Shown here: one piece after another, positions 3,948-64,000 of the stretch
Layout of the letters: every line of letters begins with the position of its first letter
Position numbering within the stretch: position 1 is the first letter of the stretch
From: a virus
IMG/VR virus record: IMGVR_UViG_3300034198_015644
Location: 1 to 64,000 of that record
DNA: 64,000 nt
Direction: 5' to 3' (one strand)
Notes under the pieces: model-generated
Told to the model about the DNA's origin: nothing
What the model saw: only the letters and a program-made list of their open reading frames with translations
Databases searched by the model: none
Translations under genes and position numbers: made by a program

Positions 3948-3948
3948 A

Positions 3949-31833: not shown

Positions 31834-31845
31834 AATTAAAAATTT

Positions 31846-31854
31846 AATATTTAT
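31846..31854 (+). promoter_or_regulatory. Putative late promoter motif AATATTTAT
   Basis: Recurring motif between gp25 and gp6, 25 nt before the gp6 start. Confidence 0.45.
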
Positions 31855-31879
31855 TAAAAACAAAGTATTTGGATAAAAA

Positions 31880-42703: not shown

Positions 42704-42716
42704 AAAAAAAGATAAA

Positions 42717-46618: not shown

Positions 46619-49600
46619 ATGGCGTTCCCAATATTAAGAGATCCTGAAGTAATACATTTATTTGTAGATAAGTTCCCAACTTTATTGAGTGGTCCGTCTA
46701 GTGCAATTACAGAATTTTATAGTTTTTGTGTAAAAAATGGAGTAAATGAACTTTCATTATATGACACATTAAGTGTTTTACCAAGTTCAACAAACTCAGT
46801 TAGTAATTTTATTTATAGTGCAAAAACTTTTAATTACGTATGTGAAGTTGGCGGAACCGTAAATCCTTATGATCCTGCAACATTAGGATTAAAATATTTA
46901 AACTTAATTACTACCTACAATAATGGACAACCAAATCTATCAAGAAAATACGATAGGATAACTATTGAGAATGAATTTTGGAACTTAGAGACAAGTATTA
47001 ATCCATTAAAAAATACTGCAGGATTTACCATATCAACAATTGCGGGAAATACTGTGGCATCCATAGCAGGGGGAATACCCTCATCAATTTTTGTTGTGGG
47101 AAATATGGTTAAAGTTTTTGGTGAATATAGACAAGTCTTAGCAATTGGGGCGACAACAATAACTGTTGATAGAGGATTTACTAATACAGTAACAAATCAA
47201 ACTTTTGAAATTAGAGATAATAAAGTTTCGGGGGCAGAAACATATGCAATTGATTTTGAAACATATTTGTTGCGTTTAAAAAATATTAGAAATGTTGCAG
47301 TTGCAAATAATTTAAAAATAGATGCATATCTTTCAAGAAGAGTAACACAAGTACAATTTTTAAAATTAATTCCATTTATTGACAGAATTTTAATTGAGGC
47401 AGATTACGATCAAAATAATTATTTACTATATAACGACCCAACACAATTAAATAAAATACGAGATGTTTTAATTAGATGTAGTCAAAATAGAACAGGTACT
47501 GTCAATATCAATGTTGGTAACAATAATATGCAAGGTATTGGGACTGACTTTACCAATGAGTTGGGAGTTGGTACAAAGATTTACGTTAGTGGACAAGTTT
47601 TTACAATACAATCTATTGTAAGCTCAACGCAGGCAACTTTATTGGAAACTAACAATAGTAGTACAATTAATAATGCAACTTTTAAAACTTATACAGAATT
47701 TGCCCCAATATTCTATATCAACAAGACATTAAGAAAAACTTGGTTAACCACACCTGTTAGTACTAAAAGTTATGCTGATGTTTTTAAAATGTTTACACTT
47801 AGTGGTTATACAGTAGGAGGATCAGTACAATCAGGTAGTAACCCAATTTGTTATAATTTGGAAGACAACCCATCAATAACTGGTGCGACTAATTTGATTG
47901 GCATATCAATATTTGATAGAACTGAGGCACAATCTATAGACATAAAAGTTGCACAATCTTCTTCACCAAGATCAAGTTGTACCAATCCTTTGGCTAGATC
48001 TATTGGTGCTAACAATACTTATGCAATAACTTTTCAAGGAAATGATTGTACCTGTGATAATGCGACAAATGGATCAGTAACTGCGAATTTTAGTACAATA
48101 CAACCTACCCCATACAACTATACATTTACAAATGGTGGTAGAGTAATTGAGATTACAAATTTAACTACACCACCACCATATACGTTTAGTGGTCTAGGTT
48201 TAGGTACTTGGAACATATCAGTAAGAGATGGTAATAATAGTGTTTCAACAGGTAGTGTCACAATAAATGAATCATTTCAACCAACCATTACAGGTAATTA
48301 TATAAGTGCAGGTCAAGGCGGAATTACAGTATTCTATACGGGAGGTTATAACAACTACTATATTTCAAGAATAGATAACCCAACAAATATAAACAATCAA
48401 TGGGGACCTTTTATTTCATATCACAATGCAGGTAGTGATCCATTTTTTGATTCTAACATAACAGTTAATAATACAACAAAATCATATAATTCATCATCTA
48501 CTCCTGCGTATAATTTTGTACCAAATCAAAGTTATAGTTTTGTTATTGGAGATACAGATGCATGTATTAAAATTTTTACTGTAACAATACCTCAAGCGTC
48601 AACGGGACCTTCAGTAAATATTACTCAAACTACCAATCCATCTTGTGATGCAGCATCAAACGGTTCTATAACTATGGTTGCAGCAGGCACAGGACCTTAC
48701 GTATTTCATGTAACATATCCAAATGGAAATACAAGTAACATAAATAGTGTGAGTACTACACAAGTATTAAATAATTTATCGGCAGGAAATTACTCAGTAA
48801 CAGTAACAGATGCAAATAATGTTACATCTACCCCTGCGGTTACTACAACTTTAACTAATACATATAATTCAAATATAAATGCAACTAGTACATCACCTAA
48901 TCAAGTGTGTTTTCAATTAGTCGCAGGATCAACATATACTATAACATCAGGAGGGGGAACATTCCAATCATTTAATCAAACAGTAAGTGGACCTAACTTT
49001 ACCCCATGTTTTAATAATTTACCAGGAGGACAATATAACTTTAATGTTTTATCTTCTAATGGTTGTTCAGAAACAATTTATTTAACAGTTAATAGTGCAA
49101 CATTAACATTATCATTAAATCAATACGAAAATCCAAGTTGTACACAAGTTAATGATGGAATTATTAATGTATTTGCGACAAGTAATGGTAATGGACAATT
49201 TTCTTATTCCGCATCAAATGGTAGTGTAATTTATAGCAACAATAGTGGTAATTTTACTAATTTGAGTGCCGGTACTTGGACATTATCAGTTAGTCAAAAT
49301 GGAATTTTGGGGAATAATATTGTAGTGCAATTAAATAATTCATTTTATGTTAATGTGACTAGTACAGGTGAAACTGTATGTGTTAGTGCGAGTGGTGGTT
49401 CATTAGGTATTTATACTGTAGATATTAACGGTACGTTACACACCTATAACACCGCATCCACAATAAATTGTTATACTGGTCTTTGTTCGGGAAATGTTGT
49501 CAGAGTTGTTGATGGTGACATTATAAACACTTCAATATCAGGTTGTGTATACACCACAACAACACCTAAAGATTGTGCATTTAATTTTAACGTCACTGCT

Positions 49601-52600
49601 AATACAATTACTTGTGGCGACTACGGATCAATAATAGCTAGGGCGGATGGTGGAGTTACTCCATATATTTATACTGCCACAGGTAATGGTACGTACACGA
49701 ATACTACAGGTAATTTTAATGTTTTACCATCAGGTATATGGACAATAACAGTAGAGGATAACATTGGTAACTCAGGAACTACGACAGTTAATTTAGATAG
49801 TAAACTTAAATTTAGTGCCGACAGTAGCGCTCTTAGTGCAACATGTGTTACCATTATAGATGGTTTAGCACCTTACTATATTTTAATAAATCAAATATTA
49901 TATACTGCCTCTACACAAGGAACTTATTGTTTTGATTTAGAATGTGGTTATAATGGTATTGATGTATATGATAGTTGTACAGGAACTACTTGTGCAAATT
50001 ATTTATTTACTGCTCCGGGTGGAATACAAAGTTTTTTTCAAAATATATTTTGGACTAATTGTAGTGGAATGACACAAAGTGGAATTTTAAATTCAATTAG
50101 CCCTATCATAGGTAATACTTTTAGTACCTGTGCAATTTTTGGAACTCCTGTTACTACAAATTCTAAAATAGAAATAAGTCTAATAGGTTTTTGTCCACCC
50201 GGCACAAATCAAGATTGCGTGGTTGATAATAGTGTGATTGTGTATTATGATTGTCCGGGACCATTAAGTTTAGAACAAACTCAAGATAGTGTCAATCCTA
50301 GCTGTACTGATAGTAGTGATGGTGAGATATACTTTAGTGGTTTTGGTGGGGACTATCCCTATGTTAGTTATTCAGCAATAAATGGTAATACCATATATGT
50401 TAATGGTACAGGTACATTTTCAAATTTAAGTGCAGGTACTTGGACGATTTATGTTGAAGATAGTTCAAACACTATAACATCAACAACTGTAACATTAGTT
50501 TCAGATTTTATAGTTGATTTTACTATCACTAGTTTTACAGAAAACAGCGTGACCATTTGTGCTAATATACCAATCCAATATCAAACATTAGAATATGAAT
50601 TAACGTTTGAAAATCAAACGGCGATATTGAATGCATCTAATTCTTTTTGTAATACATTTACAGGGATAACAGGATGTAGTGTAGTTAATGTTAATTTATG
50701 TTCTTTAAGAAATTATAGAAGGCTTACTAATATTGGTGGTGGAGGTAGAAGTGTAATTAAAGGAAGTGATGGTCTTTTTTATGGGGTAACACAAATTGGT
50801 GGTTTATACAATTATGGGACTATATACAGATATAATGAAACCACTAAGGTTTATACTACATTACATAGTTTTAATGGGACTACAGATGGAAACACCCCGC
50901 AAGATATAATTGAAGTATCTAATGGAAAATTATACGGAATTTGTTTAGTCGGTGGTAATAGTGGTTATGGTACGTTGTTTAGTTGTACCACTTCAGGATC
51001 ATACGCAGTAATACATAATTTTGATGGGACGAACGGTGGAAATCCGGTTAGCAATTTAACTTTGGCTAGTAATGGTGTCATGTATGGAATGACACAATAT
51101 GATTCTACTTATGGATACGGCACTATATTTAGTTGTAGTACCATTGGAAATTTTGGGGTAGTTTATTCTTTCCAATACGTTTTTTCCATACCTTTTGATG
51201 GGTACAACCCAACAGGAAAATTAATCGAAGCATCTAATGGGTTACTTTATGGGGTCACACCACTTGGAGGTTCGAGTGACCAAGGAATTTTATTTAATTA
51301 TGATTATATAAATAATCAATATAACAATTTATTTTCTTTTGATTATGGGTCAGTCGCATATCCAAATGAAATAGTTGAAGGATTGGATAATAATTTATAT
51401 GTAATAGGTGATACATTTTCAAATAAAAGTATTTATAAATTAGATTTATCGGGAACACCAAAAGGAAATGTACATAATTTTTCATTAAGTGACGGATCAA
51501 ATGCAAATAAATTAATAAAAGGACTTAATGGTAATTTATGGGGATCAACTTTATATGGTGGTTTATATAATTTTGGTACAATATTTAGTTGTGATACTTT
51601 AGGTAATTTTGAAGTACTGTATAATTTTAAAAATTCTCTTCCAAATGACAATTTCTTATTGAATACTAACTCAACAATATTTTATGGGACAAGACAATCA
51701 AATATATTGTATAAAATAAATGTTAGTTTACCCGAATCTTGTTGTTTTGATACAACTACAAATTTAAATGATTTGTTAAAACCAAATATAATTTCTCTTT
51801 ATGGAGACTATGTTAATGGGGTGCCAAGTATTTGTACTACGATAGATATTAGTAGCTCAGTTAATGTTTGGTATACTGTAACTGTAAATGGAGAAGAAAA
51901 CATATATGATAGAAGTTTAGAACCTAATTGTTTTAGTGCGCTAACTGAGGGGTTAACAGATGTTTCTATATGTGAATATGTGGATTCATTTAACTATCTA
52001 GCAATACATTATTTTGACTCAACTAACAATACTTTTGGGACTACTCCTAATGGAGGTTTGATAGAGGCAAGTGACGGCAACTTTTATGGTATGACATTTA
52101 ACGGAGGTTCAAATGATTTTGGTGTAATTTATAGTTGTGATACTATAGGTAATTATGGTATAATATATAATTTTGGGTCTGTTTTATTTGATGGAAAATA
52201 TCCACTTGGATCTTTAATACAAGGATCAAACGGAACATTATATGGGATGACATCATCAGACAATATATTAAATTTATGTGGAGTAATTTTTAGTTGTACT
52301 ACAACAGGTAATTATGGGATAATACATAGATTTGATAATACAGTTACTAATGGCGTAACTAAAGGAAGAACACCTGAAGGTTCTTTATGCGAAGTTTCTG
52401 ATGGATTCTTATATGGGGTGACAAGATATGGAGGTTTTAATAATGGTGGGGTAATATTTAAAATTAACCCAACAACAGGACAATATTTTTCAATTTATGA
52501 ATTTGGACAAGCACCAAATGATCCATTAGAACCAATAGAAGGTGTAATAGAAGTTAACAATAAATTATATGGAATGTCTTACTTTGGAGGACAACATAAT

Positions 52601-55600
52601 TTTGGCACTATATATGAATTGGACTTAAACATAGGTGTACCTAATACTGTATTTAGTTTTGAAAATGTAACTGGTTCGGGAGATATTGGATTTTATCCTA
52701 ATGGAAAATTAACTTTAGGGTCAAACGGATTGTTATATGGACTAACAACTGGTGGAGGATTTTATGGAGTAGGGGCATTTTTTGAATTCGATCCAACTTA
52801 TCTAACCTATAGGACAATACATAGTTTTAGTGGCACCCCTATTGACGGTGAGACTGCGACAGGTACTTTATTTGAAGATGAAAATGGAGTATTTTATGGG
52901 TTAACAAAAGAAGGTGGACCTATAGGTCGAGGAACAATTTTTGCTTGTGATATATATGATAATTATAAAATTTTAAAAACTTTAAATAATTCAAACGGTA
53001 GATATCCTGAGAATACATATTTTATAAAGGCATCCGATAATAATTTATATTCTACAGTTAGTGGTGGATTACCTAATAATGGTGGTGGTATTATAAAATT
53101 AACAATTGAAACATTAACGGGTTGTTGTTATAGTGCAACTACAAATATACCACAGTGTTTAGACGGAGTGACTATTGACACATTATGGATAGATAATATG
53201 CCATATGTTAATGTATTAATTAATAGTCAAAATACTACACCTCCATATGAAGTTACGGTTGGGGGTATAACATATCCTTATTATGTTGGATCATTAACCG
53301 GAAATTGTTACCCAATAATCGGATGTGATCCAGTTATTGTAAATGTTTGTGCACCTGAGATTACTTCCCAACAATTAAGTGGATTTACAGTAGAACATAA
53401 ATTTAGTTTTTCAGATGCTTATGATGGTAAAAATCCATATGGTGATTTAACATTAAATTATAATGGAATATTTTATGGAATGACATCGCAGGGTGGTGTA
53501 AATGAGCCAGGATATTTCCCCACAGGATGCGGAACAATTTTTAGTTTTGATCCAATAACTAAGATTTATCAAAAAGTTTATGATTTAGACGCTGATAATG
53601 GAGATGGATTTTTTCCAAAAGGAACATTACAATGTGACCTAAATTATAATTTATATGGGGTTAATTATTACGATGCAGTTAGTGGTTATGGTACGTTGTT
53701 TAGTTGTACCACTTCAGGATCATACGCAGTAATACATAATTTTGACGATGTTAATGGATCAAATCCTGTTACATTACCTAGTAGAGAACCATTAACAGGA
53801 CGATTCCAAAGAGTCGGAACAACAATAAAAAGTGCAACCGGTGATGGAGTTTTATATAGTTTTGATAATGGTACACACGTGAATGATGATTTTAGCTCAA
53901 TAGGGTCTTTTGGTCGAGGCACTAATTCATATTTTAATGACCCATCTATATCTTATAATAAAGGAATAAATTCAAACGGACCCTTATTAGTTGATCAAGA
54001 GTTATCATTAATATATTTCGGATCAACTCAAGCATTTGTTTACGGCATGACAAAAGAAGGGGGAACAAACAATAATGGTGTTATTTTTGCTTATGACTTT
54101 TTTGTCTATGGTTTATACGATATTTATAATTTTACAGGCGGAGCGGACGGAGGAAAACCAACAGGAGGTTTAATTAAGTATAGTTATGGGTTATATAATA
54201 AAGTTTATGGAATGACTTCAGAAGGTGGTGCAGGTTTTGGTGTCATATTTGAGATGGATTTATCAATTTTTGGTTCACCTGTAAATACAATTTTACATAC
54301 ATTTGCGGGAGGAACTTCTGATGGATCTAGACCATATGGTTCATTATACGAATTTAATGGTCGACTTTATGGTATGACATATTATGGAGGAACGAATAAT
54401 GCCGGTGTAATATTCTCATTAGACCCAAGACTTCCTTATCCACACGACTATACAATCATTCATAGCTTTAATGGAAGTACGGGAGGATCAAATCCTGTAG
54501 GTTCATTGACAATGGGCCCTGATGGTAAATTATATGGTATGACATTGTATGGCGGTAATGGAGTAGGTGTAGGAGGTAAAGGTATAATATTTAGTATTGA
54601 TTTTAATTTAACTCAAAGAGCGGCATGTTGTTATCAAACAACCATAGACGTAAATGATCCTAACGATATAAATTTACCTCTTATTGAGGGAACTTGGTTT
54701 AATTCACAACCAACAATTTCTGTGAGCATTGACCCAAATAATTATTATGTCGCTCCTTATACTGTAACTATTGATGGAGTTACATATAACTATGACACAA
54801 ATAGTGCTAAAAATTATTTCCCACAATTAAGTTGTGGTACACATACAGTAGTCATTACACCAAATGCGGGAAACAATACACTTGACTTTTCGGGTTTAAA
54901 ATCGTTTAGTGGACCAACAATTGATCCGGGTTCATTATTTGGTAATCCAATTGAACCAATCACCAACGAATTTTATGCCTTATCTTATGCGGGTGGAGCA
55001 TTAAATTTTGGTACAATTTTTAAGATTGATTTGTTAGGTAATGTTGAGATACTTCATAATTTTTCAGGATCAACTTATGGTGATGGAAACCACCCAATAC
55101 AAGATTTAATTTTATCGTCAAATGGAAAAATGTACGGTACAACCTCGGAAGGCGGAATATATAATGCGGGTACAATATTTAGTTGTGATACTTTAGGTAA
55201 TTATGGTATAGTTTATAATTTTTCTGGTGGCACAAATGGAGGTGGACCGATTCAAAATTTAACAGAAGTTTCTAATGGTATTTTTTATGGATTAGTGTAT
55301 CAAACCGGTGCATTTGGTATGGGTATTATTTTTAGTTGTGATACAATAGGAAATTATAAATTGATTCATAGTTTTAGTGGGTCACCTTATGATGGGATGC
55401 AACCTTTAGAAAGTTTTTATAAACATTCAAATGGTATTTTATATGGTACTACATTTAATGGGGGTACTTATAATGCGGGAACAATTTTTAGTTGTGACAC
55501 TTTAGGTAATTATGGTATAATTCATAGTTTTAATAATACAGTGATTCCCAATAACGGATGCAACCCAAGATGTACGTTAATTGAGGGAGATAATGGTATT

Positions 55601-58600
55601 TTATATGGTACTACATCAAATGGTGGAAATATAGGTTCATATGGGACAATTTTTACTTGTAGTACATCAGGAAATTATGGAGTAATACATAAATTTACAG
55701 GTGTAGATGGTGACGGACCACAAGAAGGTCTTTTTAAAGGTCAAAGTAATATTTTTTATGGGACTACTTATGGTGGTGGGATTCATAATTTGGGTACAAT
55801 TTATAGTTGTGATACTTTAGGTAATCATGGGGTAATTTACAATTTTAATGGTTCAGGTTCAACCGGATCTTTACCGTATAATGGATTATATGTGGCAGAA
55901 AATGATATTTTATACGGTTTCACTCAGTACGGCGGAATTTATTCGGCGGGAAATTTTTATAGATTTAATCCATATAATTTTCTATATGGAGATTGTCCTT
56001 ATTCGGGTACTGTTAACATACCATGTTTTTATTTAGATGAATTAAATGTGGAAGTTCCATGTACAACAAACGATGGTCAAATATCAGTTCAGGCATTGGG
56101 AGGTAATCCTGATTACACATATACTTTGACATATACTAGTATAACAAATGATACATACAGTATAACACAATTTGGTACCACATTTCAACCAATAACGTTT
56201 ATCAATTTAAGTGCATTAACATGGGGATTAATTGTCACAGATTCTAGTGGACAAACGTTAAGTCAAATTTATGATTTTAATCCAATCGATAACCCATCTA
56301 TCACTACAGTTAATGGTGATACTATTTGTATTAGTTTAGATCAAGTGGGATTATCATTAACAGGTATTACATTAGATGGTAATATACTATATAGTGGGAA
56401 TATAGGTCTAACTAATTTTTGTTTTACTGCAGGTTGTGGTAACCATTTGGCCCAATTTTATACTACCAATGGATGTATGTACCCCATTCCCTTTTCTTTT
56501 GATTGCCCACCAAGTAATTTAGTCTTCACAAATTTAAGTCAGATAGATCCTTTTTGTTGTAACTCTTCTGCAAAAATTAATGTGGCAGTAACAGGCGGTA
56601 CATTGCCATATACGTATACTATATATAATATACCAACTACCGCGACTTATACTAATACTACGGGTAATTTTACAAACATATACCCACCTACAGGAACTTG
56701 GCAAGTAATTGCAACGGATGCAAATGGTAGCACGATAAGTAGTAATATTTTTACATTAAATTCAATATTTTTTGCTGATATTACATTTATTAATAATATC
56801 GCAGTTATTAATTTTAGTGGATCTACTGGAATAGATGTACTAATAAATGGAGTTTCACAAACTTTAGGTTATATTGCAACTAAAGTAAGTGGGGGAACTT
56901 TAAGTTATCCAATACCTTGTGGAACTAATATTAATGTTGAAGTTATTGGTAGAATAGTTATAAATCCTATAACTAAAACTTATGAATATTGTCCTATAAG
57001 TGCAAGTACATTTTATCCTTGTCCTTTATTTTGTAGTAATATAATTAGTCAACCAAGATGTCCAGGACAAAACGCTAATTCTGTTACAGTCTTAGTAACA
57101 GGCGGAACACCAAACTACAATATAACATTAACTAATGGTACGTTAATTTATACTGCTAACACATCACTAAATAGTTATATTTTTAACGATAACCCACCTT
57201 TAGTCACTTTAATACAAGATGATTGGACAATAACTGTTATAGATTCTGATGGTACAGTTTGTATACAAGATATAACTATACAATCTAGTTTTGATGCAAC
57301 AATAACAGGTACGTCAACGGGGGCATGTTTTACGGTAGTTGGGGGAAATCCACCATATACACTTTATATTGATGGCGTGATTTATACACCATTAATAAAT
57401 CAAATAAGTAATGATATTGTTTATTGCGTACCACTAAATTGCGGTAATCATCAATTAGAAATAAGAGAAACAGGAGTACCACCAGCGGCATGTTCAATAG
57501 TTTTAGATTACTTTAGTTCCTGTCAATTGACTTGTAGTACAATAACTACAGATCCCGGTTGTAATGATAATTGTAGTGGATCAGTTACGATAAGTGTAAC
57601 TGGTGGAACACCACCATACAACTATAGTTTAATTAGAACCTCACCATCGTTTTATCAAACGACATATACGGGTCCACAAACTACTTGGACTTTCTATGAT
57701 CTATGCGAAGGGACTTATGATATTACAGTATCGGCGTTAACTAATGGTGCGTTTTGTACATCTAATTTGAATCTAGCATCAATATATGATGTAGTAGTTA
57801 GTGGATATGCAGTTTCAACTAACTGTCTATATGGTGTAATGTGTATTGACATTACGGGAGGAACACCACCTTATGATGTATATATTGATGGAATACTAAG
57901 AGCAACTGCAATTACTCAAACACATAGTTGTTATAGTGCAACTTGTGGTGTAAATCATACTTATCAGGTAATTGATTCTGCACCTCCTTGTAATATACCA
58001 TTAAATCAGGCATTACTTAAAAATACAAGTTTTACAGGGACTAGTGATTGGATATTGACTAATGATTATACTGGTAGTACTATAATATCGGGAGGTAGTG
58101 CAATAGTATCTTCTACGACATATAATACTTTACAAGTATTTAGATTTTTACAAGATTATATTTTCCCGTTCCAAAAACCAATATCAATAAAATATAATGT
58201 CAGTGTTAGTACAGGGACAATTCAAAATTACAATTATTTACCACAATTTAGGATACAAAGTCCTTTTGGTAGTACTAATATGGGTGGAATTGCACCTAAT
58301 TCGACATATTCTACAACAAAACAGATAGTAAGTACGGTAGAACCTGTAATTTTCTCAGGTTTTGGTATTAATTTTTATCAATCGTTCCTACCTAATAATA
58401 AAACTGAGGTAAAAGACATGCAATTGACATTATTGTCTTATACTGTAGATTGTAGATGTTCGGCTAGCGGAACTACATATGTACCTTGCAACCCACCATT
58501 AACATTAAATGTTGTTTCTTATACAGAACCAAATTGTTTCAGTGCTTGTAATGGAACTATCATCGTTTCTGCAACCGGAGGAGTACTCCCATATAGTTAC

Positions 58601-58924
58601 TCAGCAACTAATGGAACGTCAATTTACATAAGCCCTAACGGGGTATTTAACGATCTTTGTGAAGATACTTGGGACTTGTCGGTTAGTGATAGTTGTAATA
58701 CAGTTGTTACAAACGCAGGATTCTTCTTACCAAACTCATTCCATGTAACAGTGGATACGTATCCTACAGAGTTTTGTGTGGGAATAACAGGAGGAACACC
58801 ACCTTACCATGTTTTCATAGATAATGTAGAAATTGATACCATTAGTCAAAGTCCGGTTAATATTTGTTATAGCGCAAGTTGTGGGGTAACCACAATTATA
58901 CGTGTGGTGGATAGCTCTACTTAA
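46619..58924 (+). CDS. Giant tail fibre/adhesin with SprB modules and four seven-repeat GloVer blocks
   Basis: 4101 residues. Residues 1-~450 resemble a TIM-barrel-like domain (YDRITIENEFWN, YAIDFETYLLRLKNI, FIDRILIEADYD) interrupted by small beta inserts. Residues ~460-1360 hold five SprB-like modules (NPSCDAASNGSITM, NLSAGTWTLSV). Residues ~1365-3125 hold four blocks of seven GloVer-type repeats (YGMTFNGG, GTIFSCDTLGNYG, IHSFNG patterns), separated by ~90-residue Ig-like linkers beginning CCY/CCF. Residues ~3130-4101 hold five more SprB-like modules alternating with a companion domain. It should form a long receptor-binding fibre. Repeat types are typical of Bacteroidota surface proteins, suggesting exchange with hosts. 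A hairpin follows. Confidence 0.88.
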   Translation: MAFPILRDPEVIHLFVDKFPTLLSGPSSAITEFYSFCVKNGVNELSLYDTLSVLPSSTNSVSNFIYSAKTFNYVCEVGGTVNPYDPATLGLKYLNLITTYNNGQPNLSRKYDRITIENEFWNLETSINPLKNTAGFTISTIAGNTVASIAGGIPSSIFVVGNMVKVFGEYRQVLAIGATTITVDRGFTNTVTNQTFEIRDNKVSGAETYAIDFETYLLRLKNIRNVAVANNLKIDAYLSRRVTQVQFLKLIPFIDRILIEADYDQNNYLLYNDPTQLNKIRDVLIRCSQNRTGTVNINVGNNNMQGIGTDFTNELGVGTKIYVSGQVFTIQSIVSSTQATLLETNNSSTINNATFKTYTEFAPIFYINKTLRKTWLTTPVSTKSYADVFKMFTLSGYTVGGSVQSGSNPICYNLEDNPSITGATNLIGISIFDRTEAQSIDIKVAQSSSPRSSCTNPLARSIGANNTYAITFQGNDCTCDNATNGSVTANFSTIQPTPYNYTFTNGGRVIEITNLTTPPPYTFSGLGLGTWNISVRDGNNSVSTGSVTINESFQPTITGNYISAGQGGITVFYTGGYNNYYISRIDNPTNINNQWGPFISYHNAGSDPFFDSNITVNNTTKSYNSSSTPAYNFVPNQSYSFVIGDTDACIKIFTVTIPQASTGPSVNITQTTNPSCDAASNGSITMVAAGTGPYVFHVTYPNGNTSNINSVSTTQVLNNLSAGNYSVTVTDANNVTSTPAVTTTLTNTYNSNINATSTSPNQVCFQLVAGSTYTITSGGGTFQSFNQTVSGPNFTPCFNNLPGGQYNFNVLSSNGCSETIYLTVNSATLTLSLNQYENPSCTQVNDGIINVFATSNGNGQFSYSASNGSVIYSNNSGNFTNLSAGTWTLSVSQNGILGNNIVVQLNNSFYVNVTSTGETVCVSASGGSLGIYTVDINGTLHTYNTASTINCYTGLCSGNVVRVVDGDIINTSISGCVYTTTTPKDCAFNFNVTANTITCGDYGSIIARADGGVTPYIYTATGNGTYTNTTGNFNVLPSGIWTITVEDNIGNSGTTTVNLDSKLKFSADSSALSATCVTIIDGLAPYYILINQILYTASTQGTYCFDLECGYNGIDVYDSCTGTTCANYLFTAPGGIQSFFQNIFWTNCSGMTQSGILNSISPIIGNTFSTCAIFGTPVTTNSKIEISLIGFCPPGTNQDCVVDNSVIVYYDCPGPLSLEQTQDSVNPSCTDSSDGEIYFSGFGGDYPYVSYSAINGNTIYVNGTGTFSNLSAGTWTIYVEDSSNTITSTTVTLVSDFIVDFTITSFTENSVTICANIPIQYQTLEYELTFENQTAILNASNSFCNTFTGITGCSVVNVNLCSLRNYRRLTNIGGGGRSVIKGSDGLFYGVTQIGGLYNYGTIYRYNETTKVYTTLHSFNGTTDGNTPQDIIEVSNGKLYGICLVGGNSGYGTLFSCTTSGSYAVIHNFDGTNGGNPVSNLTLASNGVMYGMTQYDSTYGYGTIFSCSTIGNFGVVYSFQYVFSIPFDGYNPTGKLIEASNGLLYGVTPLGGSSDQGILFNYDYINNQYNNLFSFDYGSVAYPNEIVEGLDNNLYVIGDTFSNKSIYKLDLSGTPKGNVHNFSLSDGSNANKLIKGLNGNLWGSTLYGGLYNFGTIFSCDTLGNFEVLYNFKNSLPNDNFLLNTNSTIFYGTRQSNILYKINVSLPESCCFDTTTNLNDLLKPNIISLYGDYVNGVPSICTTIDISSSVNVWYTVTVNGEENIYDRSLEPNCFSALTEGLTDVSICEYVDSFNYLAIHYFDSTNNTFGTTPNGGLIEASDGNFYGMTFNGGSNDFGVIYSCDTIGNYGIIYNFGSVLFDGKYPLGSLIQGSNGTLYGMTSSDNILNLCGVIFSCTTTGNYGIIHRFDNTVTNGVTKGRTPEGSLCEVSDGFLYGVTRYGGFNNGGVIFKINPTTGQYFSIYEFGQAPNDPLEPIEGVIEVNNKLYGMSYFGGQHNFGTIYELDLNIGVPNTVFSFENVTGSGDIGFYPNGKLTLGSNGLLYGLTTGGGFYGVGAFFEFDPTYLTYRTIHSFSGTPIDGETATGTLFEDENGVFYGLTKEGGPIGRGTIFACDIYDNYKILKTLNNSNGRYPENTYFIKASDNNLYSTVSGGLPNNGGGIIKLTIETLTGCCYSATTNIPQCLDGVTIDTLWIDNMPYVNVLINSQNTTPPYEVTVGGITYPYYVGSLTGNCYPIIGCDPVIVNVCAPEITSQQLSGFTVEHKFSFSDAYDGKNPYGDLTLNYNGIFYGMTSQGGVNEPGYFPTGCGTIFSFDPITKIYQKVYDLDADNGDGFFPKGTLQCDLNYNLYGVNYYDAVSGYGTLFSCTTSGSYAVIHNFDDVNGSNPVTLPSREPLTGRFQRVGTTIKSATGDGVLYSFDNGTHVNDDFSSIGSFGRGTNSYFNDPSISYNKGINSNGPLLVDQELSLIYFGSTQAFVYGMTKEGGTNNNGVIFAYDFFVYGLYDIYNFTGGADGGKPTGGLIKYSYGLYNKVYGMTSEGGAGFGVIFEMDLSIFGSPVNTILHTFAGGTSDGSRPYGSLYEFNGRLYGMTYYGGTNNAGVIFSLDPRLPYPHDYTIIHSFNGSTGGSNPVGSLTMGPDGKLYGMTLYGGNGVGVGGKGIIFSIDFNLTQRAACCYQTTIDVNDPNDINLPLIEGTWFNSQPTISVSIDPNNYYVAPYTVTIDGVTYNYDTNSAKNYFPQLSCGTHTVVITPNAGNNTLDFSGLKSFSGPTIDPGSLFGNPIEPITNEFYALSYAGGALNFGTIFKIDLLGNVEILHNFSGSTYGDGNHPIQDLILSSNGKMYGTTSEGGIYNAGTIFSCDTLGNYGIVYNFSGGTNGGGPIQNLTEVSNGIFYGLVYQTGAFGMGIIFSCDTIGNYKLIHSFSGSPYDGMQPLESFYKHSNGILYGTTFNGGTYNAGTIFSCDTLGNYGIIHSFNNTVIPNNGCNPRCTLIEGDNGILYGTTSNGGNIGSYGTIFTCSTSGNYGVIHKFTGVDGDGPQEGLFKGQSNIFYGTTYGGGIHNLGTIYSCDTLGNHGVIYNFNGSGSTGSLPYNGLYVAENDILYGFTQYGGIYSAGNFYRFNPYNFLYGDCPYSGTVNIPCFYLDELNVEVPCTTNDGQISVQALGGNPDYTYTLTYTSITNDTYSITQFGTTFQPITFINLSALTWGLIVTDSSGQTLSQIYDFNPIDNPSITTVNGDTICISLDQVGLSLTGITLDGNILYSGNIGLTNFCFTAGCGNHLAQFYTTNGCMYPIPFSFDCPPSNLVFTNLSQIDPFCCNSSAKINVAVTGGTLPYTYTIYNIPTTATYTNTTGNFTNIYPPTGTWQVIATDANGSTISSNIFTLNSIFFADITFINNIAVINFSGSTGIDVLINGVSQTLGYIATKVSGGTLSYPIPCGTNINVEVIGRIVINPITKTYEYCPISASTFYPCPLFCSNIISQPRCPGQNANSVTVLVTGGTPNYNITLTNGTLIYTANTSLNSYIFNDNPPLVTLIQDDWTITVIDSDGTVCIQDITIQSSFDATITGTSTGACFTVVGGNPPYTLYIDGVIYTPLINQISNDIVYCVPLNCGNHQLEIRETGVPPAACSIVLDYFSSCQLTCSTITTDPGCNDNCSGSVTISVTGGTPPYNYSLIRTSPSFYQTTYTGPQTTWTFYDLCEGTYDITVSALTNGAFCTSNLNLASIYDVVVSGYAVSTNCLYGVMCIDITGGTPPYDVYIDGILRATAITQTHSCYSATCGVNHTYQVIDSAPPCNIPLNQALLKNTSFTGTSDWILTNDYTGSTIISGGSAIVSSTTYNTLQVFRFLQDYIFPFQKPISIKYNVSVSTGTIQNYNYLPQFRIQSPFGSTNMGGIAPNSTYSTTKQIVSTVEPVIFSGFGINFYQSFLPNNKTEVKDMQLTLLSYTVDCRCSASGTTYVPCNPPLTLNVVSYTEPNCFSACNGTIIVSATGGVLPYSYSATNGTSIYISPNGVFNDLCEDTWDLSVSDSCNTVVTNAGFFLPNSFHVTVDTYPTEFCVGITGGTPPYHVFIDNVEIDTISQSPVNICYSASCGVTTIIRVVDSST
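48030..50700 (+). repeat. SprB-type module array 1 (five modules)
   Basis: Protein-level repeats with NPSC-x4-NGSI and LSAGTWTI-x-V-x-D signatures, roughly 75 residues each, some followed by a companion domain. They match the SprB repeat style of flavobacterial gliding adhesins. Confidence 0.75.
50710..51730 (+). repeat. GloVer repeat block 1 (seven units)
   Basis: Seven units with the core YGxTxxGG-x(2-6)-GTIFSCD followed by IHNFDG. One unit is degenerate (YVIGDTFSNKSIYKLD). Predicted seven-bladed propeller. Confidence 0.7.
50959..51024 (+). repeat. 66-bp perfect direct repeat, copy 1
   Basis: Identical to 53680-53745 within the same gene; encodes one GloVer blade (YGTLFSCTTSGSYAVIHNFD). 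Confidence 0.97.
52010..53110 (+). repeat. GloVer repeat block 2 (seven units)
   Basis: Seven units: cores YGMTFNGG, YGMTSSDN, YGVTRYGG, YGMSYFGG, YGLTTGGG, YGLTKEGG, YSTVSGG. Confidence 0.72.
53390..54620 (+). repeat. GloVer repeat block 3 (seven units)
   Basis: Cores YGMTSQGG, YGVNYYDA, a degenerate YSFDNGTH unit, YGMTKEGG, YGMTSEGG, YGMTYYGG and YGMTLYGG. Confidence 0.7.
53680..53745 (+). repeat. 66-bp perfect direct repeat, copy 2
   Basis: Identical to 50959-51024, 2.7 kb upstream, in a different GloVer block. Confidence 0.97.
54890..55990 (+). repeat. GloVer repeat block 4 (seven units)
   Basis: Cores YALSYAGG, YGTTSEGG, YGLVYQTG, YGTTFNGG, YGTTSNGG, YGTTYGGG, YGFTQYGG, most followed by GTIFSCDTLGNYG. 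Confidence 0.75.
56030..58920 (+). repeat. SprB-type module array 2 (five modules with companion domain)
   Basis: Alternating A modules (TDPGCNDNCSGSVTISVTGG, PPYNYSL) and B modules (GGTPPYDVYIDG, CYSATCG, VIDS). The gene ends in a B module. Confidence 0.75.
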
Positions 58925-58966
58925 AAAAGTAAAATATAAAAGATTAAAACTATGTACGTTTTTTAT

Positions 58967-59012
58967 AAAATCCTTAATTTTAAATAATTAAGGATTTTAT
59001 CCTTTTATTTTT
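58967..59012 (+). terminator. Putative terminator between fibre genes
   Basis: A 13-bp perfect stem (AAAATCCTTAATT / AATTAAGGATTTT) with a 6-nt loop, followed by a T-rich but interrupted tract. Confidence 0.65.
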
Positions 59013-59036
59013 ATTAAAAAACTTATAAAAAATCAG

Positions 59037-59059
59037 AAAACAAAATAATTATTTTAAAA
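59037..59059 (+). promoter_or_regulatory. Shared 23-nt upstream element, copy 2
   Basis: Identical to the element before the giant fibre gene, here 7 nt before the 626-residue fibre gene start. It includes palindrome AAAATAATTATTTT. Confidence 0.55.
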
Positions 59060-59066
59060 ACAAAAG

Positions 59067-60947
59067 ATGCCTATTCCAGCACCATATAATCCTAAAAATT
59101 TACATTTATGGGTTGATAATGTTACTAGTTTGTTAACTAACAGTACCAATTTTTTCCAATTAATTGATAATAACTGTATTAACACATTCACTATGTATCA
59201 AATACCTACGATAACTTCGCAGGTACAATCTTTGGGAAATTTTATATGTGAGGCAAAAACAAATCATGGAGTCTGTAGTGTGGCAGGAATTATAAACCCA
59301 TACGATTGGACTCCTCCTCCGGCCGGTACAAGAAACGTTCAATCTATTGTCAATTACAATAATAACCCAATTACACAGGCAAATTCATGTCGTAGAATTG
59401 ATTATCTCACAATTGAGAGTGAGTTTTGGAATATAGACGATCCCGCAATAAATCCTGTAGTTTCTAATGGTTGTACCATAAATATAGCTGCTAACTCATC
59501 AACAGGTACAGTTTCAGGTTGTTTAGGAGGAGTAACCGCAGGTATGATAATAAAAGTTTCTGTTGGGGCGACTTTTGTTTATAGACAAATAATTGGTATT
59601 AGTGGTAATATTGTAACATTTGATAGAGTTTTTGATCCAATTAACGCGTACTTAGCTGCACCATTTACAGTAATTAACAACCAAACCTTCTATGGAATTG
59701 ATTTTGAAACACTATTATATAGGATAAAATATAATATACGACCTATGGCAATTGCAAATAACTTATTGCCATTAGAAATATATGTTTCAAGAGCTTTAAC
59801 CAGCGATCAATTTGAAAGACTAATACCACACGTTGATAGATTATTAATTGAGGTAGATTATAATCAATTAAGTTATCCTAGATACAACGATAACGATGTA
59901 ACTAATCCCTCATGGTCAACTAACACTATTAAAAACGCTCTAAGTCTTTGTAGCGTCATTAGAACGGGTACAATTTCAATTGCACAAAATAGTAATATTG
60001 TAACAGGTAGTGGAACTTTATTTACAAGAGATTTGGGTGAACAATCACAAATAATTGTAAATGGAAACCAAATTTATACAATTGCCACAATAATTTCAGA
60101 TACTCAGGCAACAATTGTTGGTACTTCCCCAATCAATATAACTGCAGGTAGCACATACGCATCTTATTTTGATTACATGCCAATTTTTTATACATTACCA
60201 GCTGGGGCATTTGGTACTCCTCTTAGGAGACAATGGATGTTAAACCCTTCACCAAAAAGTTATGCGGATGTATATAGATTCCATTCTCAAAACGCCTATA
60301 CTGCAGGTGGATCAATACAGGTAGGAAATACCCCTATTGCATTTAACAACGAAACAGATCCATATATTGTTGATTCAGTTTCATTAGTTGGTTTATCGTT
60401 ATTTGTTTGGTCTTCTGTTAGTAATTTATCTCCTGTTGCACCACCAGATTATCCTTGTCCACCTTGTAGTGGAGAAACCATAATAGGGTGCGAGGTTACC
60501 GCAATCACAACCTCAAATTGTTTAATCGCAACATATACTAATCCAGCTTGTGATGGTGTTTGTGATGGCACTATAAGTGCGTCTACAACATATGGAATTG
60601 CGCCATTTACTTATTATATAACAGGAATAACTAATTCAATAACTTATGTAAGTAGTACAGGTTTTTTCAGCGGATTATGTGAAGACACTTATATTTTATG
60701 TGTTACAGATTCTGCATCAAATACCGAATGTTATTATCAAAATATAGAATTAGTAAATACATTTTATGCATCTATAAATTCATTTTTAAATGGTTTTTGT
60801 GTTACAATAAGTGGAGGTACAGGAATTTATTATGTATACAAGGATAATCAAGTTTTGCCTTGGGATTATAATAATACTACAAATTGTTATAGTGCGGATT
60901 GTTCCACACTTTCAGTAATAACAGTAAGAGATACTAGCACATTATAA
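59067..60947 (+). CDS. Short fibre paralogue: TIM-barrel-like domain plus one SprB-type A+B unit
   Basis: 626 residues. Residues 1-~460 are a paralogue of the N-terminus of the giant fibre, with matching landmarks: LHLWVDNV, INPYDW, IDYLTIESEFWNI, YGIDFETLLYRIK, MAIANNLLPLEIYVSR, VDRLLIEVDY, PSPKSYADVY. Two small beta inserts occur at the same places. The C-terminus has one SprB-like module (NPACDGVCDGTISAS, GLCEDTYILCVTDS) and one companion module, ending VRDTSTL, like the VVDSST end of its large paralogue. It presumably attaches to the same site on the tail and presents a different tip. The next gene starts 1 nt after its stop. Confidence 0.85.
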   Translation: MPIPAPYNPKNLHLWVDNVTSLLTNSTNFFQLIDNNCINTFTMYQIPTITSQVQSLGNFICEAKTNHGVCSVAGIINPYDWTPPPAGTRNVQSIVNYNNNPITQANSCRRIDYLTIESEFWNIDDPAINPVVSNGCTINIAANSSTGTVSGCLGGVTAGMIIKVSVGATFVYRQIIGISGNIVTFDRVFDPINAYLAAPFTVINNQTFYGIDFETLLYRIKYNIRPMAIANNLLPLEIYVSRALTSDQFERLIPHVDRLLIEVDYNQLSYPRYNDNDVTNPSWSTNTIKNALSLCSVIRTGTISIAQNSNIVTGSGTLFTRDLGEQSQIIVNGNQIYTIATIISDTQATIVGTSPINITAGSTYASYFDYMPIFYTLPAGAFGTPLRRQWMLNPSPKSYADVYRFHSQNAYTAGGSIQVGNTPIAFNNETDPYIVDSVSLVGLSLFVWSSVSNLSPVAPPDYPCPPCSGETIIGCEVTAITTSNCLIATYTNPACDGVCDGTISASTTYGIAPFTYYITGITNSITYVSSTGFFSGLCEDTYILCVTDSASNTECYYQNIELVNTFYASINSFLNGFCVTISGGTGIYYVYKDNQVLPWDYNNTTNCYSADCSTLSVITVRDTSTL

Positions 60948-60948
60948 A

Positions 60949-63900
60949 ATGCCATATATTTTTAACGACAAATATTATAAAATAATACATAAAATAGGAC
61001 TTAATAATCTTAGTCAACAATCAAATAGTTCATTAATTATACCTAACTCCTTTCTAAATAATTTATTTTATGCAACAACGGAGGAAACGAGCTTAGTAGG
61101 TTCCAATTTTCGAGGTACTATATATAGAGCTGATGCGGATGGTAACGTTTTTGATGTTTTGTATCTTTTTTCGGGATTAACTCAACCACTCACACTATTT
61201 AAAGACGGTGATGGAGATCGACCAATCGGATCATTAATCGAAGCACCAAATGGGTTGTTGTATGGAACAACTGATGGTGGCGGGGTTTGGACTAATAGTA
61301 GTCAAACTCCTATTTATGGAAATGGTATATTATTTAGCTATGACCCTTTGGGTAATACATACAATATTTTATATAGATTTTCGGGTATAACAAATTTTGA
61401 TCCGATACCTTCTTTAACGGATGGTGGTAGGCCACAAGCAAATTTAAAAGTAATTTCAGGTACAACAATATTTGGTACAACTTGTGCCGGAGGTTATAAC
61501 CCTATAGGTGGGGGAACTGAATTAGGGTCTATTTGGAAATTTGATACGTCAACTAATACATATTCAATTTTACACCATATTACTGCATCTACGGAAGGAA
61601 GAAAAGTAACTGAACTTATTTTGGCTAATGATGATAATTTATATTTTACAACCAAATTTGATGGTGCGGGTTTTCCATGGCCTGCTGGAGGATCATTAGT
61701 TAAATTAGATCTAAATGGGAATAGTACAGTAATACATCAGTTTACCAATACTCCTGATGGGGCAGATCCTTCCGCATCATTATTACAGGCATCAAATAAT
61801 TTAATTTATGGTACAACTACTCAAGGAGGAACAGGAGGATATGGGACAATATATACGTGTGATACTTCAGGTAATTACGGAATCATATATAATTTTTTAG
61901 GTGGAATTAATGGACAAAATCCATCAGGATCTTTATATGAATATAGCCCTGGATTATTTTATGGTATGGCATATGGTGGGGGTAATTTTAATTTAGGTGT
62001 TATTTATAGTTCAGATACTTTTGGAAATGTAGGAGTAATTCACCATTTTGGATCTTTTTATCTAGATGGAGAATCTAATTATCGACAAATTACTAATCTT
62101 AGTACAGGAGTTAATGGATCTCTTTTTGGTGTTACAAACGGTGGAGGAATAGGAAGCGGGACAATTTATACTTGGATTGATACTTGTAGTTTTATTTATT
62201 CCAGAAGCGGAACAACATTAAATTATTTCGATCCAAATCATATTGAATATTCGTATTATTTTGAAACTATAAGTCCATCAAATATAAGAGTAGCATTTGC
62301 ATGTAGAAATAATAATCTTTTTTGGAGAAAAATTACCACATCATTTAATGTTATAGATGAATTTACGTTAGGAAATTTTTTAGACGAAGCGCCCGTCATA
62401 AATAGAAATATATTTTTACCTCCAGCAGCATTTAAAGGAATGGCATATGCCGGACCAAATCAACTCTTTGTAAACAATAGAACTTCACAAAGAGTTGAAT
62501 TATATGATATAACAAATACAAGTGCAACATTAATAACTCCAGTATTTTCACTACCTATAACACATCAGTTTAGTATAGGAAATTATACAGATTCTTTGTA
62601 TGTAAATAACACTCAAACAGTATTTTATATTAATTTTAATAATACATTTACATCGTTTGATTCTAGTGGACAAATTTTAAATGACGGGGCACCACCTTTA
62701 GGTAATGTAGTTAGTATGTATGTACATAATGGTGATATATACACTACTACTGACAATAATTTAATTTATCTTACCGAACCTTCCGCACCAAGTGGATGGA
62801 CTTTTACCTTGATAGGTAATACACCATATAACGAACCAATGTATGCAATCGCACAAGATAATATTTCTGAATGTCTATTATCAATCCCAACGGTAGATTA
62901 TTCTTGTGTAACTTTATTTGTACGTTATGCGGATGATTTTTATATTTATGAACTTGACCCCAATAATCCCGATATTTTAAATTATAGATTTAAGCCTTTT
63001 TATGCGACAACTCAATTAGCGACAAACGGAATTTATCTTTGGGCACATAGAAGTACAGTTCCTTCATCATTTATTGATGTGTATGATTTGGCCGCATCGT
63101 ATGCTACTCTTAATGGGGTATTAGTACCAAGTATGCAAATTACTGTTCCAATTAACACTAGACTTGGTGGAATTTTTTATATATCACCTAACCAATTATA
63201 TGTAGTTAATGAAACTTTAAATACGGTAGAATTGTGGGACATATCAACACCACCTACACCTATAATAACAACAGTATTTAATATACCCGCACCATATTCG
63301 CCAGTAATACTTAACTCTTCCTATAATTCTTTATATGTTGATTTAAATAATAATATATTTTATTTGACAACTTTTACTGATTTTGTTTCATTTAGTGTAA
63401 CACCTGGCAACCCTAATCCAACTGTTTTAAATACCTCATCAAGTACAATTCTCCCAAATGGGCATCAAATAATTAACATGTATTTGGATAATGGACAAAT
63501 ATATGTTACAACTCAACAAGGGTATATATATTTGGCACAACCGGCGGTGGGAGGAGGATGGACTTTTATACAACAAACATTTATACCTAGACCAACAAGA
63601 TTTGGTGTGACACAAACTTATGCAGAAGATTGTGTAGGTACTGTTCCACCCACACCTTTAACAGGTTGTGTTATCACAGGATTAACAGTAACAGGTTGTT
63701 CTGATTTTGTTATAGTAAGTGGGGATAGTCAAGACATAACATGTTTACATGATGGTAGTGTATCAATTCAAATATCAGGAGGATGCCCAAATTATACATA
63801 TACATTATACCACCCAAATATAAGTACACAAGTAAATCAAGTAGTAACACCTAACAAAAATTGGACTTTTACAGGATTAACTGATCCGGGAAATTACTAT

Positions 63901-64000
63901 GTATCTATAAGTGGATGTAGTGGGGCGACGTTAGTGACATTAAGTCCATTTACAATTTTAGATAACAATACTTTTTATAATAACATCTTCCAATTAAACA
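60949..64000 (+). CDS. Fibre/adhesin with seven GloVer repeats, duplicated propeller-like domain and SprB module (3' truncated by window)
   Basis: Open frame of at least 1017 codons starting MPYIFNDKYYKIIHKIG and running off the right edge. Residues ~10-415 hold seven GloVer units (YATTEETS, YGTTDGGG, FGTTCAGG, YFTTKFDG, YGTTTQGG, YGMAYGGG, FGVTNGGG). Residues ~415-900 hold two copies of a ~240-residue domain (VELYDITN / VELWDIST; SLYVNNTQ / SLYVDLNN; GWTFTLIG / GWTFIQQT) like YncE/LVIVD propellers. The end carries an SprB-like module (DITCLHDGSVSIQISGG). It lacks the TIM-barrel-like N-terminus of its neighbours, so it may bind to them. Probably co-translated with the 626-residue fibre. Confidence 0.85.
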   Translation, partial: MPYIFNDKYYKIIHKIGLNNLSQQSNSSLIIPNSFLNNLFYATTEETSLVGSNFRGTIYRADADGNVFDVLYLFSGLTQPLTLFKDGDGDRPIGSLIEAPNGLLYGTTDGGGVWTNSSQTPIYGNGILFSYDPLGNTYNILYRFSGITNFDPIPSLTDGGRPQANLKVISGTTIFGTTCAGGYNPIGGGTELGSIWKFDTSTNTYSILHHITASTEGRKVTELILANDDNLYFTTKFDGAGFPWPAGGSLVKLDLNGNSTVIHQFTNTPDGADPSASLLQASNNLIYGTTTQGGTGGYGTIYTCDTSGNYGIIYNFLGGINGQNPSGSLYEYSPGLFYGMAYGGGNFNLGVIYSSDTFGNVGVIHHFGSFYLDGESNYRQITNLSTGVNGSLFGVTNGGGIGSGTIYTWIDTCSFIYSRSGTTLNYFDPNHIEYSYYFETISPSNIRVAFACRNNNLFWRKITTSFNVIDEFTLGNFLDEAPVINRNIFLPPAAFKGMAYAGPNQLFVNNRTSQRVELYDITNTSATLITPVFSLPITHQFSIGNYTDSLYVNNTQTVFYINFNNTFTSFDSSGQILNDGAPPLGNVVSMYVHNGDIYTTTDNNLIYLTEPSAPSGWTFTLIGNTPYNEPMYAIAQDNISECLLSIPTVDYSCVTLFVRYADDFYIYELDPNNPDILNYRFKPFYATTQLATNGIYLWAHRSTVPSSFIDVYDLAASYATLNGVLVPSMQITVPINTRLGGIFYISPNQLYVVNETLNTVELWDISTPPTPIITTVFNIPAPYSPVILNSSYNSLYVDLNNNIFYLTTFTDFVSFSVTPGNPNPTVLNTSSSTILPNGHQIINMYLDNGQIYVTTQQGYIYLAQPAVGGGWTFIQQTFIPRPTRFGVTQTYAEDCVGTVPPTPLTGCVITGLTVTGCSDFVIVSGDSQDITCLHDGSVSIQISGGCPNYTYTLYHPNISTQVNQVVTPNKNWTFTGLTDPGNYYVSISGCSGATLVTLSPFTILDNNTFYNNIFQLN
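60990..62190 (+). repeat. GloVer repeat block 5 (seven units)
   Basis: Fifth heptad of the same repeat family, in a separate gene. Confidence 0.7.
62190..63645 (+). repeat. Two tandem ~240-residue propeller-like domains
   Basis: Paired landmarks in the same order: NQLFVNN/NQLYVVN, VELYDI/VELWDI, SLYVNN/SLYVDL, MYVHNGDIYTTT/MYLDNGQIYVTT, GWTFTLIG/GWTFIQQT. Confidence 0.8.

What the first reader, a model, noticed from the sequence alone, without database searches (positions are those of the whole stretch)
50710..62190. Five blocks of exactly seven GloVer repeats in phage fibres: predicted chain of seven-bladed beta-propellers
Counting the YGxTxxGG cores gives seven units in each of four blocks of the 4101-residue protein and seven in the next-but-one gene, with Ig-like linkers between blocks. 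A constant seven is what closed seven-bladed propellers would require. GloVer (TIGR03803) repeats are known from bacterial surface proteins; as a propeller string on a phage tail they appear unusual and may be a new receptor-binding architecture.
Basis: partly seen in the sequence, partly recalled or inferred. Interest (0 to 1): 0.8.

Follow-up and report, generated by a model that had tools for sequence, protein, structure and literature searches.

The report
Phage fibres strung with seven-bladed propellers
A large virus of bacteria carries giant fibre-like proteins in which a ring-shaped module of seven repeats, otherwise found mainly in bacterial proteins, is strung out like beads, which may give the virus many gripping points on its host.

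Summary
In the 4101-aa protein (A, window 46619-58924) and the next-but-one gene (C, from 60949) lie five GloVer (TIGR03803) blocks of seven units. C runs past the window to 4829 aa and holds a sixth block, also read as seven. A profile detects 38 of 42 units; four degenerate ones are read by eye. The literal YGxTxxGG core alone does not give seven per block.

AlphaFold2 models block A4 at pLDDT 87.4, pTM 0.88. The model aligns nearly end to end with 2z2n (293 of 293 residues, Z 30.6), and block C1 with 2qc5 (298 of 298, Z 29.7); both are, by recall, seven-bladed propellers. Each block opens with a lone fourth strand and ends without one (by eye), as in propeller closure.

Seven belongs to the family: 65 of 75 untruncated bacterial blocks hold 7 (37) or 14 (28) units. 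Verrucomicrobia also have strings of such blocks.

57 kin phage records, many of them fragments, gave no GloVer. The three largest have one shorter gene at this site. Multivalent adhesion to the host is the best reading; no binding was testable here.

The parts
46619..58924 (+). gene A, 4101 aa giant fibre-like protein: N-terminal module, SprB/Ig-like stretches, four GloVer propellers, SprB/Ig-like tail
   Evidence: TIGR03803 691.7 bits; SprB 72.7 bits
46619..47980 (+). N-terminal module of A (about 454 aa), shared with gene B at 41% identity; no Pfam family, no significant PDB relative
50705..51739 (+). GloVer block A1 (residues 1363-1707), seven units (5 by profile, units 5 and 7 by eye), opens with a lone d-like strand
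   Evidence: 206.9 bits to a bacterial-only block profile, model 22-343 of 363
51782..51985 (+). linker A1-A2, Ig-like by resemblance only
   Evidence: aligned with the others; no profile match
51983..53122 (+). GloVer block A2 (residues 1789-2168), seven units by profile
53165..53362 (+). linker A2-A3, Ig-like (weak, E 0.018)
53366..54616 (+). GloVer block A3 (residues 2250-2666), seven units (6 by profile, unit 3 by eye; one long insertion)
54677..54865 (+). linker A3-A4, Ig-like (E 1.5e-4)
54863..55987 (+). GloVer block A4 (residues 2749-3123), seven units; modelled as a seven-bladed propeller
57539..57631 (+). best-scoring SprB repeat of gene A (one of 24 SprB matches in the record)
59067..60947 (+). 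gene B, 626 aa: N-terminal module as in A, a weak SprB match (18.5 bits, below cut-off) and an Ig-like domain; no GloVer
60949..64000 (+). gene C (4829 aa in the record; leaves the window at residue 1017); holds blocks C1 and C2, a SprB run and a region conserved in kin phages (residues about 3350-4118)
60949..62193 (+). GloVer block C1 (residues 1-415), seven units; modelled as a seven-bladed propeller
62194..63678 (+). two tandem repeats of about 240 aa after C1 (34% identical over 168 aa); possibly further diverged propellers, model too weak to say
   Evidence: weak match, E 0.0089, at C 553-602

Best explanation
Genes A, B and C are giant fibre-like adhesins of a contractile-tailed, T4-like phage whose host is probably a member of the Bacteroidota. 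A carries four and C two closed seven-bladed beta-propellers of the GloVer family. Each propeller closes by pairing its lone N-terminal strand with the three strands of its last repeat, and the propellers of A are strung between SprB/Ig-like modules. Shown by sequence: the repeats, the count (four of 42 units and the closure pattern by eye), the linkers in part, and the gene position. Predicted: the fold of A4 and C1. Inferred by homology: the fold of A1-A3 and C2. Inferred: that the string sits on the tail or baseplate and works as a multivalent adhesin, the faces of several propellers each binding weakly to surface glycan or protein, while the SprB/Ig stretches act as spacers. The module was probably taken from bacterial proteins and multiplied inside this phage lineage, since the kin examined lack it.
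For: Repeats. Seven-bladed fold: A4 pLDDT 87.4, pTM 0.88, with seven sets of inner strands, six outer strands and a lone N-terminal strand 9-14; alignment to virginiamycin B lyase 2z2n (Z 30.6, rmsd 2.4, 293 of 293), integrin alpha-V and WD40 rings; C1 to 2qc5 (Z 29.7, rmsd 2.6, 298 of 298). Seven as a family rule: 65 of 75 untruncated bacterial blocks have 7 or 14 units. Register: a profile of 35 bacterial blocks alone runs nearly end to end through A1, A4 and C1. Fibre site: genes upstream match baseplate wedge and tail fibre PHROGs; the three largest kin records have at this site one gene of 1082, 1702 or 1776 aa that matches C within residues 3350-4118. Multiplication: the six phage blocks form one group (97/94, 96% of 200 bootstrap trees), and A1 and A3 share a 124-nt stretch at 79%. 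Phage precedent for propellers in host-recognition parts: phi11, phiKZ (PMC4901313, passages).
Against: No binding, host or virion protein data. A2, A3 and C2 do not align end to end with the bacterial block profile; their matches are split and shifted by repeats. In the Foldseek list of 50 rows TM-scores by query length are only 0.31-0.64, its first row is a designed protein at TM 0.55 and rmsd 7.6, and six-bladed families (DFPase, Drp35, SMP-30; blade number recalled) rank among the best by E-value; the seven-bladed call rests on the VIA list, the strand count and the repeats. Phage branches in the tree are long (C2 5.0 changes per column), so their grouping may be partly long-branch attraction. 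No two-block model was made. The stretches between propellers are only partly matched as Ig-like. An Ig/SprB-bearing gene upstream (34085-38722) matches Hoc-like head decoration PHROGs, so such modules need not mean tail. How many of the 57 kin records reach the fibre site was not determined.
Confidence: 0.6

Rival explanations
1. The propellers are enzymes (glycan lyase or hydrolase, or another lyase) that cut capsule or slime during approach, not passive adhesins.
For: The best structural neighbours include virginiamycin B lyase and carbohydrate enzymes such as L-rhamnose-alpha-1,4-D-glucuronate lyase 7esl/7esn and glycoside hydrolase 5mum; phage fibres often carry depolymerases (recalled).
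Against: A shared propeller fold says nothing about catalysis; sequence identity to these is 10-15%; a string of partly degenerate copies (A3 unit 3, A1 unit 7) fits binding better than catalysis. Active-site residues were not compared.
Confidence: 0.15
2. The propellers are structural beads (spacers or stiffeners) in a long fibre, and the binding tip lies elsewhere, for example in the conserved C region (residues about 3350-4118) or the N-terminal modules.
For: The three largest kin keep that C region without GloVer, so infection in the clade does not need propellers; the blocks of A alternate with spacer-like SprB/Ig modules.
Against: Propellers are costly spacers when SprB/Ig repeats are already there; the blocks differ strongly from each other (31-41% identity to A4), unlike uniform spacers.
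Confidence: 0.2
3. The repeats form an open solenoid or another non-propeller fold.
For: None found beyond the shifted profile matches of A2, A3 and C2 and moderate Foldseek TM-scores.
Against: Two predicted domains align with closed rings over their length; seven or fourteen in most bacterial blocks; closure strands at both ends of all six blocks (by eye).
Confidence: 0.03
4. The fibre genes are a chimera: bacterial adhesin genes wrongly joined to a phage contig.
For: GloVer was not found in phage collections apart from one doubtful contig; the record is a virus record of 106 kb that may be a fragment.
Against: G+C is 0.32-0.33 in the fibre genes and 0.30 elsewhere; C holds a region homologous to the kin phages' gene at the same site, between C1 and C2; SprB repeats also occur in the upstream gene 34085-38722 and in 14 of 34 kin records; downstream genes resemble those of kin by their first residues (by eye).
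Confidence: 0.03

Closest known systems
GloVer tandem-repeat family (NCBIfam TIGR03803, Gloeo_Verruco)
   Same: Same repeat by curated profile; the same seven-unit block; same closure as most non-Bacteroidota members in the sample.
   Different: Found here mainly in bacterial proteins; in this case in fibre-like genes of a phage, six blocks over two proteins, spaced in A by SprB/Ig-like modules.
Verrucomicrobial GloVer strings (for example L094, one open frame of 4198 aa in its genome)
   Same: At least four seven-unit blocks in one very long frame with linkers of about 260 aa.
   Different: Cellular genome; shorter linkers in the phage (about 80 aa) and a different neighbourhood.
phiKZ gp131C (PDB 4GBF)
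   Same: Seven-bladed propeller at the periphery of a phage baseplate, suspected of receptor binding (PMC4901313, passages).
   Different: One propeller domain as described there; not tested here for sequence kinship.
S. aureus phage phi11 receptor-binding protein (Gp45)
   Same: Propeller in a phage host-recognition part, closed by the N-terminal strand pairing with three C-terminal strands.
   Different: Five blades, one propeller per monomer of a trimer.
SprB gliding adhesin of Flavobacterium (PF13573 repeats)
   Same: SprB repeats lie around the propellers.
   Different: A cell-surface adhesin that may serve as a phage receptor (PMC13288928, passages); here the repeats are in a phage.
Pithovirus LCPAC304 protein A0A481Z910
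   Same: Predicted structure much like block A4 (Foldseek E 1.0e-21, TM 0.82, 24% identity).
   Different: Giant virus, a single 380-aa protein; whether it scores as GloVer was not tested.

Membership tests
TIGR03803 GloVer repeat | score over the curated cut-off of 44 bits | tested here: met
   691.7 bits (A) and 129.8 bits (first 1017 aa of C); 13 of 35 single matches over the cut-off
TIGR03803 GloVer repeat | block size as in bacterial members | tested here: met
   phage 7 in six of six blocks as read (38 of 42 units by profile; 36 of 42 by a second profile); bacteria 7 in 37 and 14 in 28 of 75 untruncated blocks
Seven-bladed beta-propeller | seven four-stranded blades in a ring | tested here: met
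   predicted only: A4 and C1; the other four blocks by alignment
Seven-bladed beta-propeller | ring closed by a strand from the far end of the chain | tested here: inconclusive
   lone d-like strand before unit 1 and no d strand in unit 7 in all six blocks, by eye; strand 9-14 in the A4 model and 10-15 in the C1 model. The pairing itself was not measured on coordinates
Seven-bladed beta-propeller | experimental structure | not testable with these tools
   no significant PDB relative by sequence; best 7plb, E 0.023
Phage tail fibre or receptor-binding protein | encoded in the baseplate and fibre region | tested here: met
   baseplate wedge and tail fibre PHROG matches upstream, with the genes between them unmatched or Hoc-like; kin gene at the same site in three records
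Phage tail fibre or receptor-binding protein | binds the host surface | not testable with these tools
   needs protein and host
SprB repeat PF13573 | score over the gathering cut-off of 28 bits | tested here: met
   72.7 bits in A; 24 matches in the record; the first 1017 aa of C alone score 26.5, just below

The most novel reading that the evidence does not exclude
The phage has rebuilt a host-type surface adhesin on its tail: bacterial GloVer propellers and gliding-adhesin SprB modules were taken in, multiplied and diversified, so that each of at least six propellers (more if the C 416-910 repeats are also propellers) offers a different binding face. It would be a combinatorial, avidity-based host-recognition string that one lineage gained and its sisters lack.
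Probability: 0.25. Interest if true: 0.8.

Novelty: new variant of a known kind. Interest (0 to 1): 0.55.

Why it matters
GloVer is a mainly bacterial repeat family for which I found no paper under its names in the library held (searches gave none; one search gave 266 papers, of which the 20 listed are unrelated by title) and no significant solved relative by sequence. The counts and models give it a likely fold, a seven-bladed propeller, a module size of seven or fourteen, and two ways of closing the ring. That makes the fold of many 'choice-of-anchor' proteins testable. In the phage it points to multivalent propeller strings as a way to build long fibres, gained at one locus in one lineage, and it gives a direct experiment: do single blocks bind host surface, and do different blocks bind different ligands?

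Tried and rejected
Open solenoid and six- or eight-unit readings: rejected on the models, the closure strands and the bacterial counts. Bacterial blocks with other counts were kept in the tally: 10 of 75 (1, 1, 3, 4, 4, 5, 6, 6, 9, 13); 26 further blocks lay near the ends of their frames and were set aside as possibly cut, 14 of them showing 7. Plasmid relatives: six records match and five were read; four read as seven units (two of these with 8 profile hits, one unit being split), while Adhaeribacter shows 13 hits, the first one partial. Rows dropped before the models: 4 of 39 bacterial blocks (two near-copies, two with an incomplete last unit). Relatives for the C 416-910 repeats: none in viral contigs, none in Pfam, E 0.03 at best in PDB, and 2 of 98 genomes of one bacterial family weakly; the model there is under pLDDT 50 over long stretches. 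The glycosidase-like look of C 2116-2397 found no PDB match and no real similarity to the N-termini of A and B; it stays a guess. Gene B and the N-terminal module of A have no match in 50,697 phage records, and viral-contig scans with the module and with window 43626-45600 gave no relative. GloVer scans of viral contigs gave none and one locus, L161, in a 14.4-kb contig with tail-like genes; its gene seems to begin with a signal peptide (by eye), so it may be a host gene beside a prophage. These scans look for exact peptide patterns and miss divergent members; a first genome scan of the same kind also gave none before one search gave 78 loci. The kin searches carry the tool's own warning that nothing rang anywhere, so absence is not proven. 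No structural family absent from the VIA lists is claimed to be excluded. Papers: besides those above, searches (14, 4, 4, 0 and 1 papers) showed by title and abstract nothing on GloVer or on a phage string of propellers; PMC4901313, PMC13288928 and PMC12923769 were seen as passages only.
Full report
What is there. The window is the first 64 kb of a virus record of 106,489 bases. It encodes a tail sheath whose best relatives in annotated phages include Microcystis and Flavobacterium phages at about 28-30% identity. PHROG matches name baseplate wedge subunits at 31444-33706 and tail fibre or collagen-like families in 43626-46187; the gene 34085-38722 matches Hoc-like head decoration and the four genes 38732-43622 match nothing. 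After them come three long genes on the same strand: A (46619-58924, 4101 aa), B (59067-60947, 626 aa) and C (60949 onward, 4829 aa, leaving the window). A and B share an N-terminal module at 41% identity. That this is a T4-like phage of Bacteroidota is my reading of gene content and of the SprB repeats (partly recalled).

The repeats. TIGR03803 (GloVer) matches 35 places in the record, 13 over its curated cut-off, and none of 14 control genomes. A profile from 18 of the phage's own units finds 5, 7, 6, 7, 7 and 6 units in blocks A1, A2, A3, A4, C1 and C2 (38 of 42; the weakest at 2 to 9 bits); a profile of phage plus bacterial units finds 36. The missing units lie at the right spacing and keep the strand pattern, by eye. 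The literal core YGxTxxGG is not enough to count by: it gives 2, 4, 5, 5, 2 and 1.

Closure. All six blocks start with a single strand that looks like the fourth strand of a unit (for example YRRLTNIG in A1, YKIIHKIG in C1), then run through six units and a seventh that stops after its third strand (by eye). This is what a ring closed by its N-terminal strand looks like.

Models. Block A4 with 39 other blocks (four from the window, 35 bacterial) gives pLDDT 87.4 and pTM 0.88; its strand list holds seven inner-strand sets, six fourth strands and the lone strand 9-14. VIA-align puts virginiamycin B lyase first (Z 30.6, rmsd 2.4, all 293 residues of the chain over model residues 6-371), followed among others by YncE, integrin alpha-V and WD40 rings and a designed seven-bladed protein; that most of these are seven-bladed is recalled. 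Foldseek lists 292 solved chains at E 0.001 or better, but among the 50 rows shown TM-scores by query length are only 0.31-0.64 and six-bladed families rank high, so Foldseek alone would not fix the blade number. For C 1-910 the GloVer part aligns with 2qc5 over all 298 residues (Z 29.7, rmsd 2.6, model 2-412) and its strand list again gives seven sets, while the rest of that model is poor (mean pLDDT 61.3 over the whole). A1, A2, A3 and C2 were not modelled.

Seven in the family. From 78 bacterial loci (the tool kept the best 80 of 144), 75 untruncated blocks hold 7 units (37), 14 units (28) or another number (10). Of the 28 fourteens, 25 are Bacteroidota by record title (lineage partly recalled). 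In these, and in most Bacteroidota sevens, the first hit starts inside the unit (profile position about 14-18) and the last ends with the fourth strand, so the ring would close at another point of the repeat. The phage blocks close like the Acidobacterial, Verrucomicrobial, Pseudomonadotal and Cyanobacterial blocks listed. A Verrucomicrobial frame, L094, has at least four blocks of seven with linkers of about 260 aa, in a frame of 4198 aa in its genome. Four of the five plasmid proteins read have seven.

Register test. A profile of the 35 bacterial blocks alone runs through A1 (model 22-343 of 363), A4 (23-357) and C1 (31-355); A2, A3 and C2 give split and shifted matches. So end-to-end agreement is shown for three of six blocks.

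Rarity in phages. tblastn with A4, C1 or a bacterial block finds nothing in 50,697 phage records; the tool may leave out records very near this one. The records of 23 sheath relatives and 34 baseplate-gene relatives hold no GloVer; they run from 4 to 194 kb, many are fragments, and how many reach the fibre site was not determined. SprB repeats are in 14 of those 34. The three largest (161, 194 and 103 kb) have a like gene order by size and first residues, with one gene of 1082, 1702 or 1776 aa where this phage has A, B and C; blastp matches it to C only, within residues 3350-4118. Hence A, B and the GloVer parts of C are additions in this lineage or losses in the others; addition is simpler. 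The six phage blocks form one group in the tree (97/94; 96% of 200 bootstrap trees) on long branches, and A1 and A3 share 124 nt at 79%, so at least some blocks arose by copying within the phage.

How it probably works. Propellers bind ligands on their faces (recalled) and phages use them in host-recognition parts: the phi11 receptor-binding protein has a five-bladed one with a cavity that could take GlcNAc, and phiKZ gp131C is a seven-bladed one at the edge of the baseplate with unproven function (PMC4901313, passages). A string of diverged propellers (31-41% identity to A4) separated in A by SprB/Ig-like stretches suggests a multivalent adhesin. This step is inference. Enzymes and spacers remain possible.

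What is new. The domain and the idea of a propeller in a phage host-recognition part are known. New here, as far as searched, are the fold and seven/fourteen rule for GloVer (by prediction and counts) and its use as a string in giant phage fibre-like proteins, not found in the kin examined.

Noticed in passing
L009 12880-14082 (record 73828-75030): Sixth GloVer block, C2, near the C-terminal end of gene C, beyond the window; most diverged of the six.
   Followed up: yes
window 62194-63678: Two tandem repeats of about 240 aa after block C1, 34% identical over 168 aa, with no family; a weak GloVer-block match (E 0.0089) hints at further diverged propellers.
   Followed up: partly
L009 6346-7191: C residues 2116-2397: a 280-aa domain with a glycosidase-like look between SprB repeats; no PDB or Pfam match.
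   Followed up: partly
L083-L160: Bacteroidota GloVer proteins of the sample often hold 14 contiguous units with partial units at the ends: two rings of seven sharing a split unit, or one ring of fourteen.
   Followed up: partly
window 28583-31363: Ribonucleotide reductase gene with an intein-like insertion (PF14890, E 5e-7, 30.1 bits against a cut-off of 35.8).
   Followed up: partly
window 43626-46187: Gene just before the fibres holds a run of GTSGSS repeats near its C-terminal end and matches tail fibre / collagen-like PHROGs over it.
   Followed up: no
L161 7200-8552: GloVer gene with seven units (by eye) and an apparent signal peptide at the end of a 14.4-kb viral contig with tail-like genes; virus or host origin unclear.
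   Followed up: partly
window 50705-62193: By eye, 13 of the phage units carry a cysteine in the third strand (IFSCDT, IYSCDT, IFTCST and the like), and blocks A1-A3 are each followed by a CC[FY] motif; meaning unknown.
   Followed up: no
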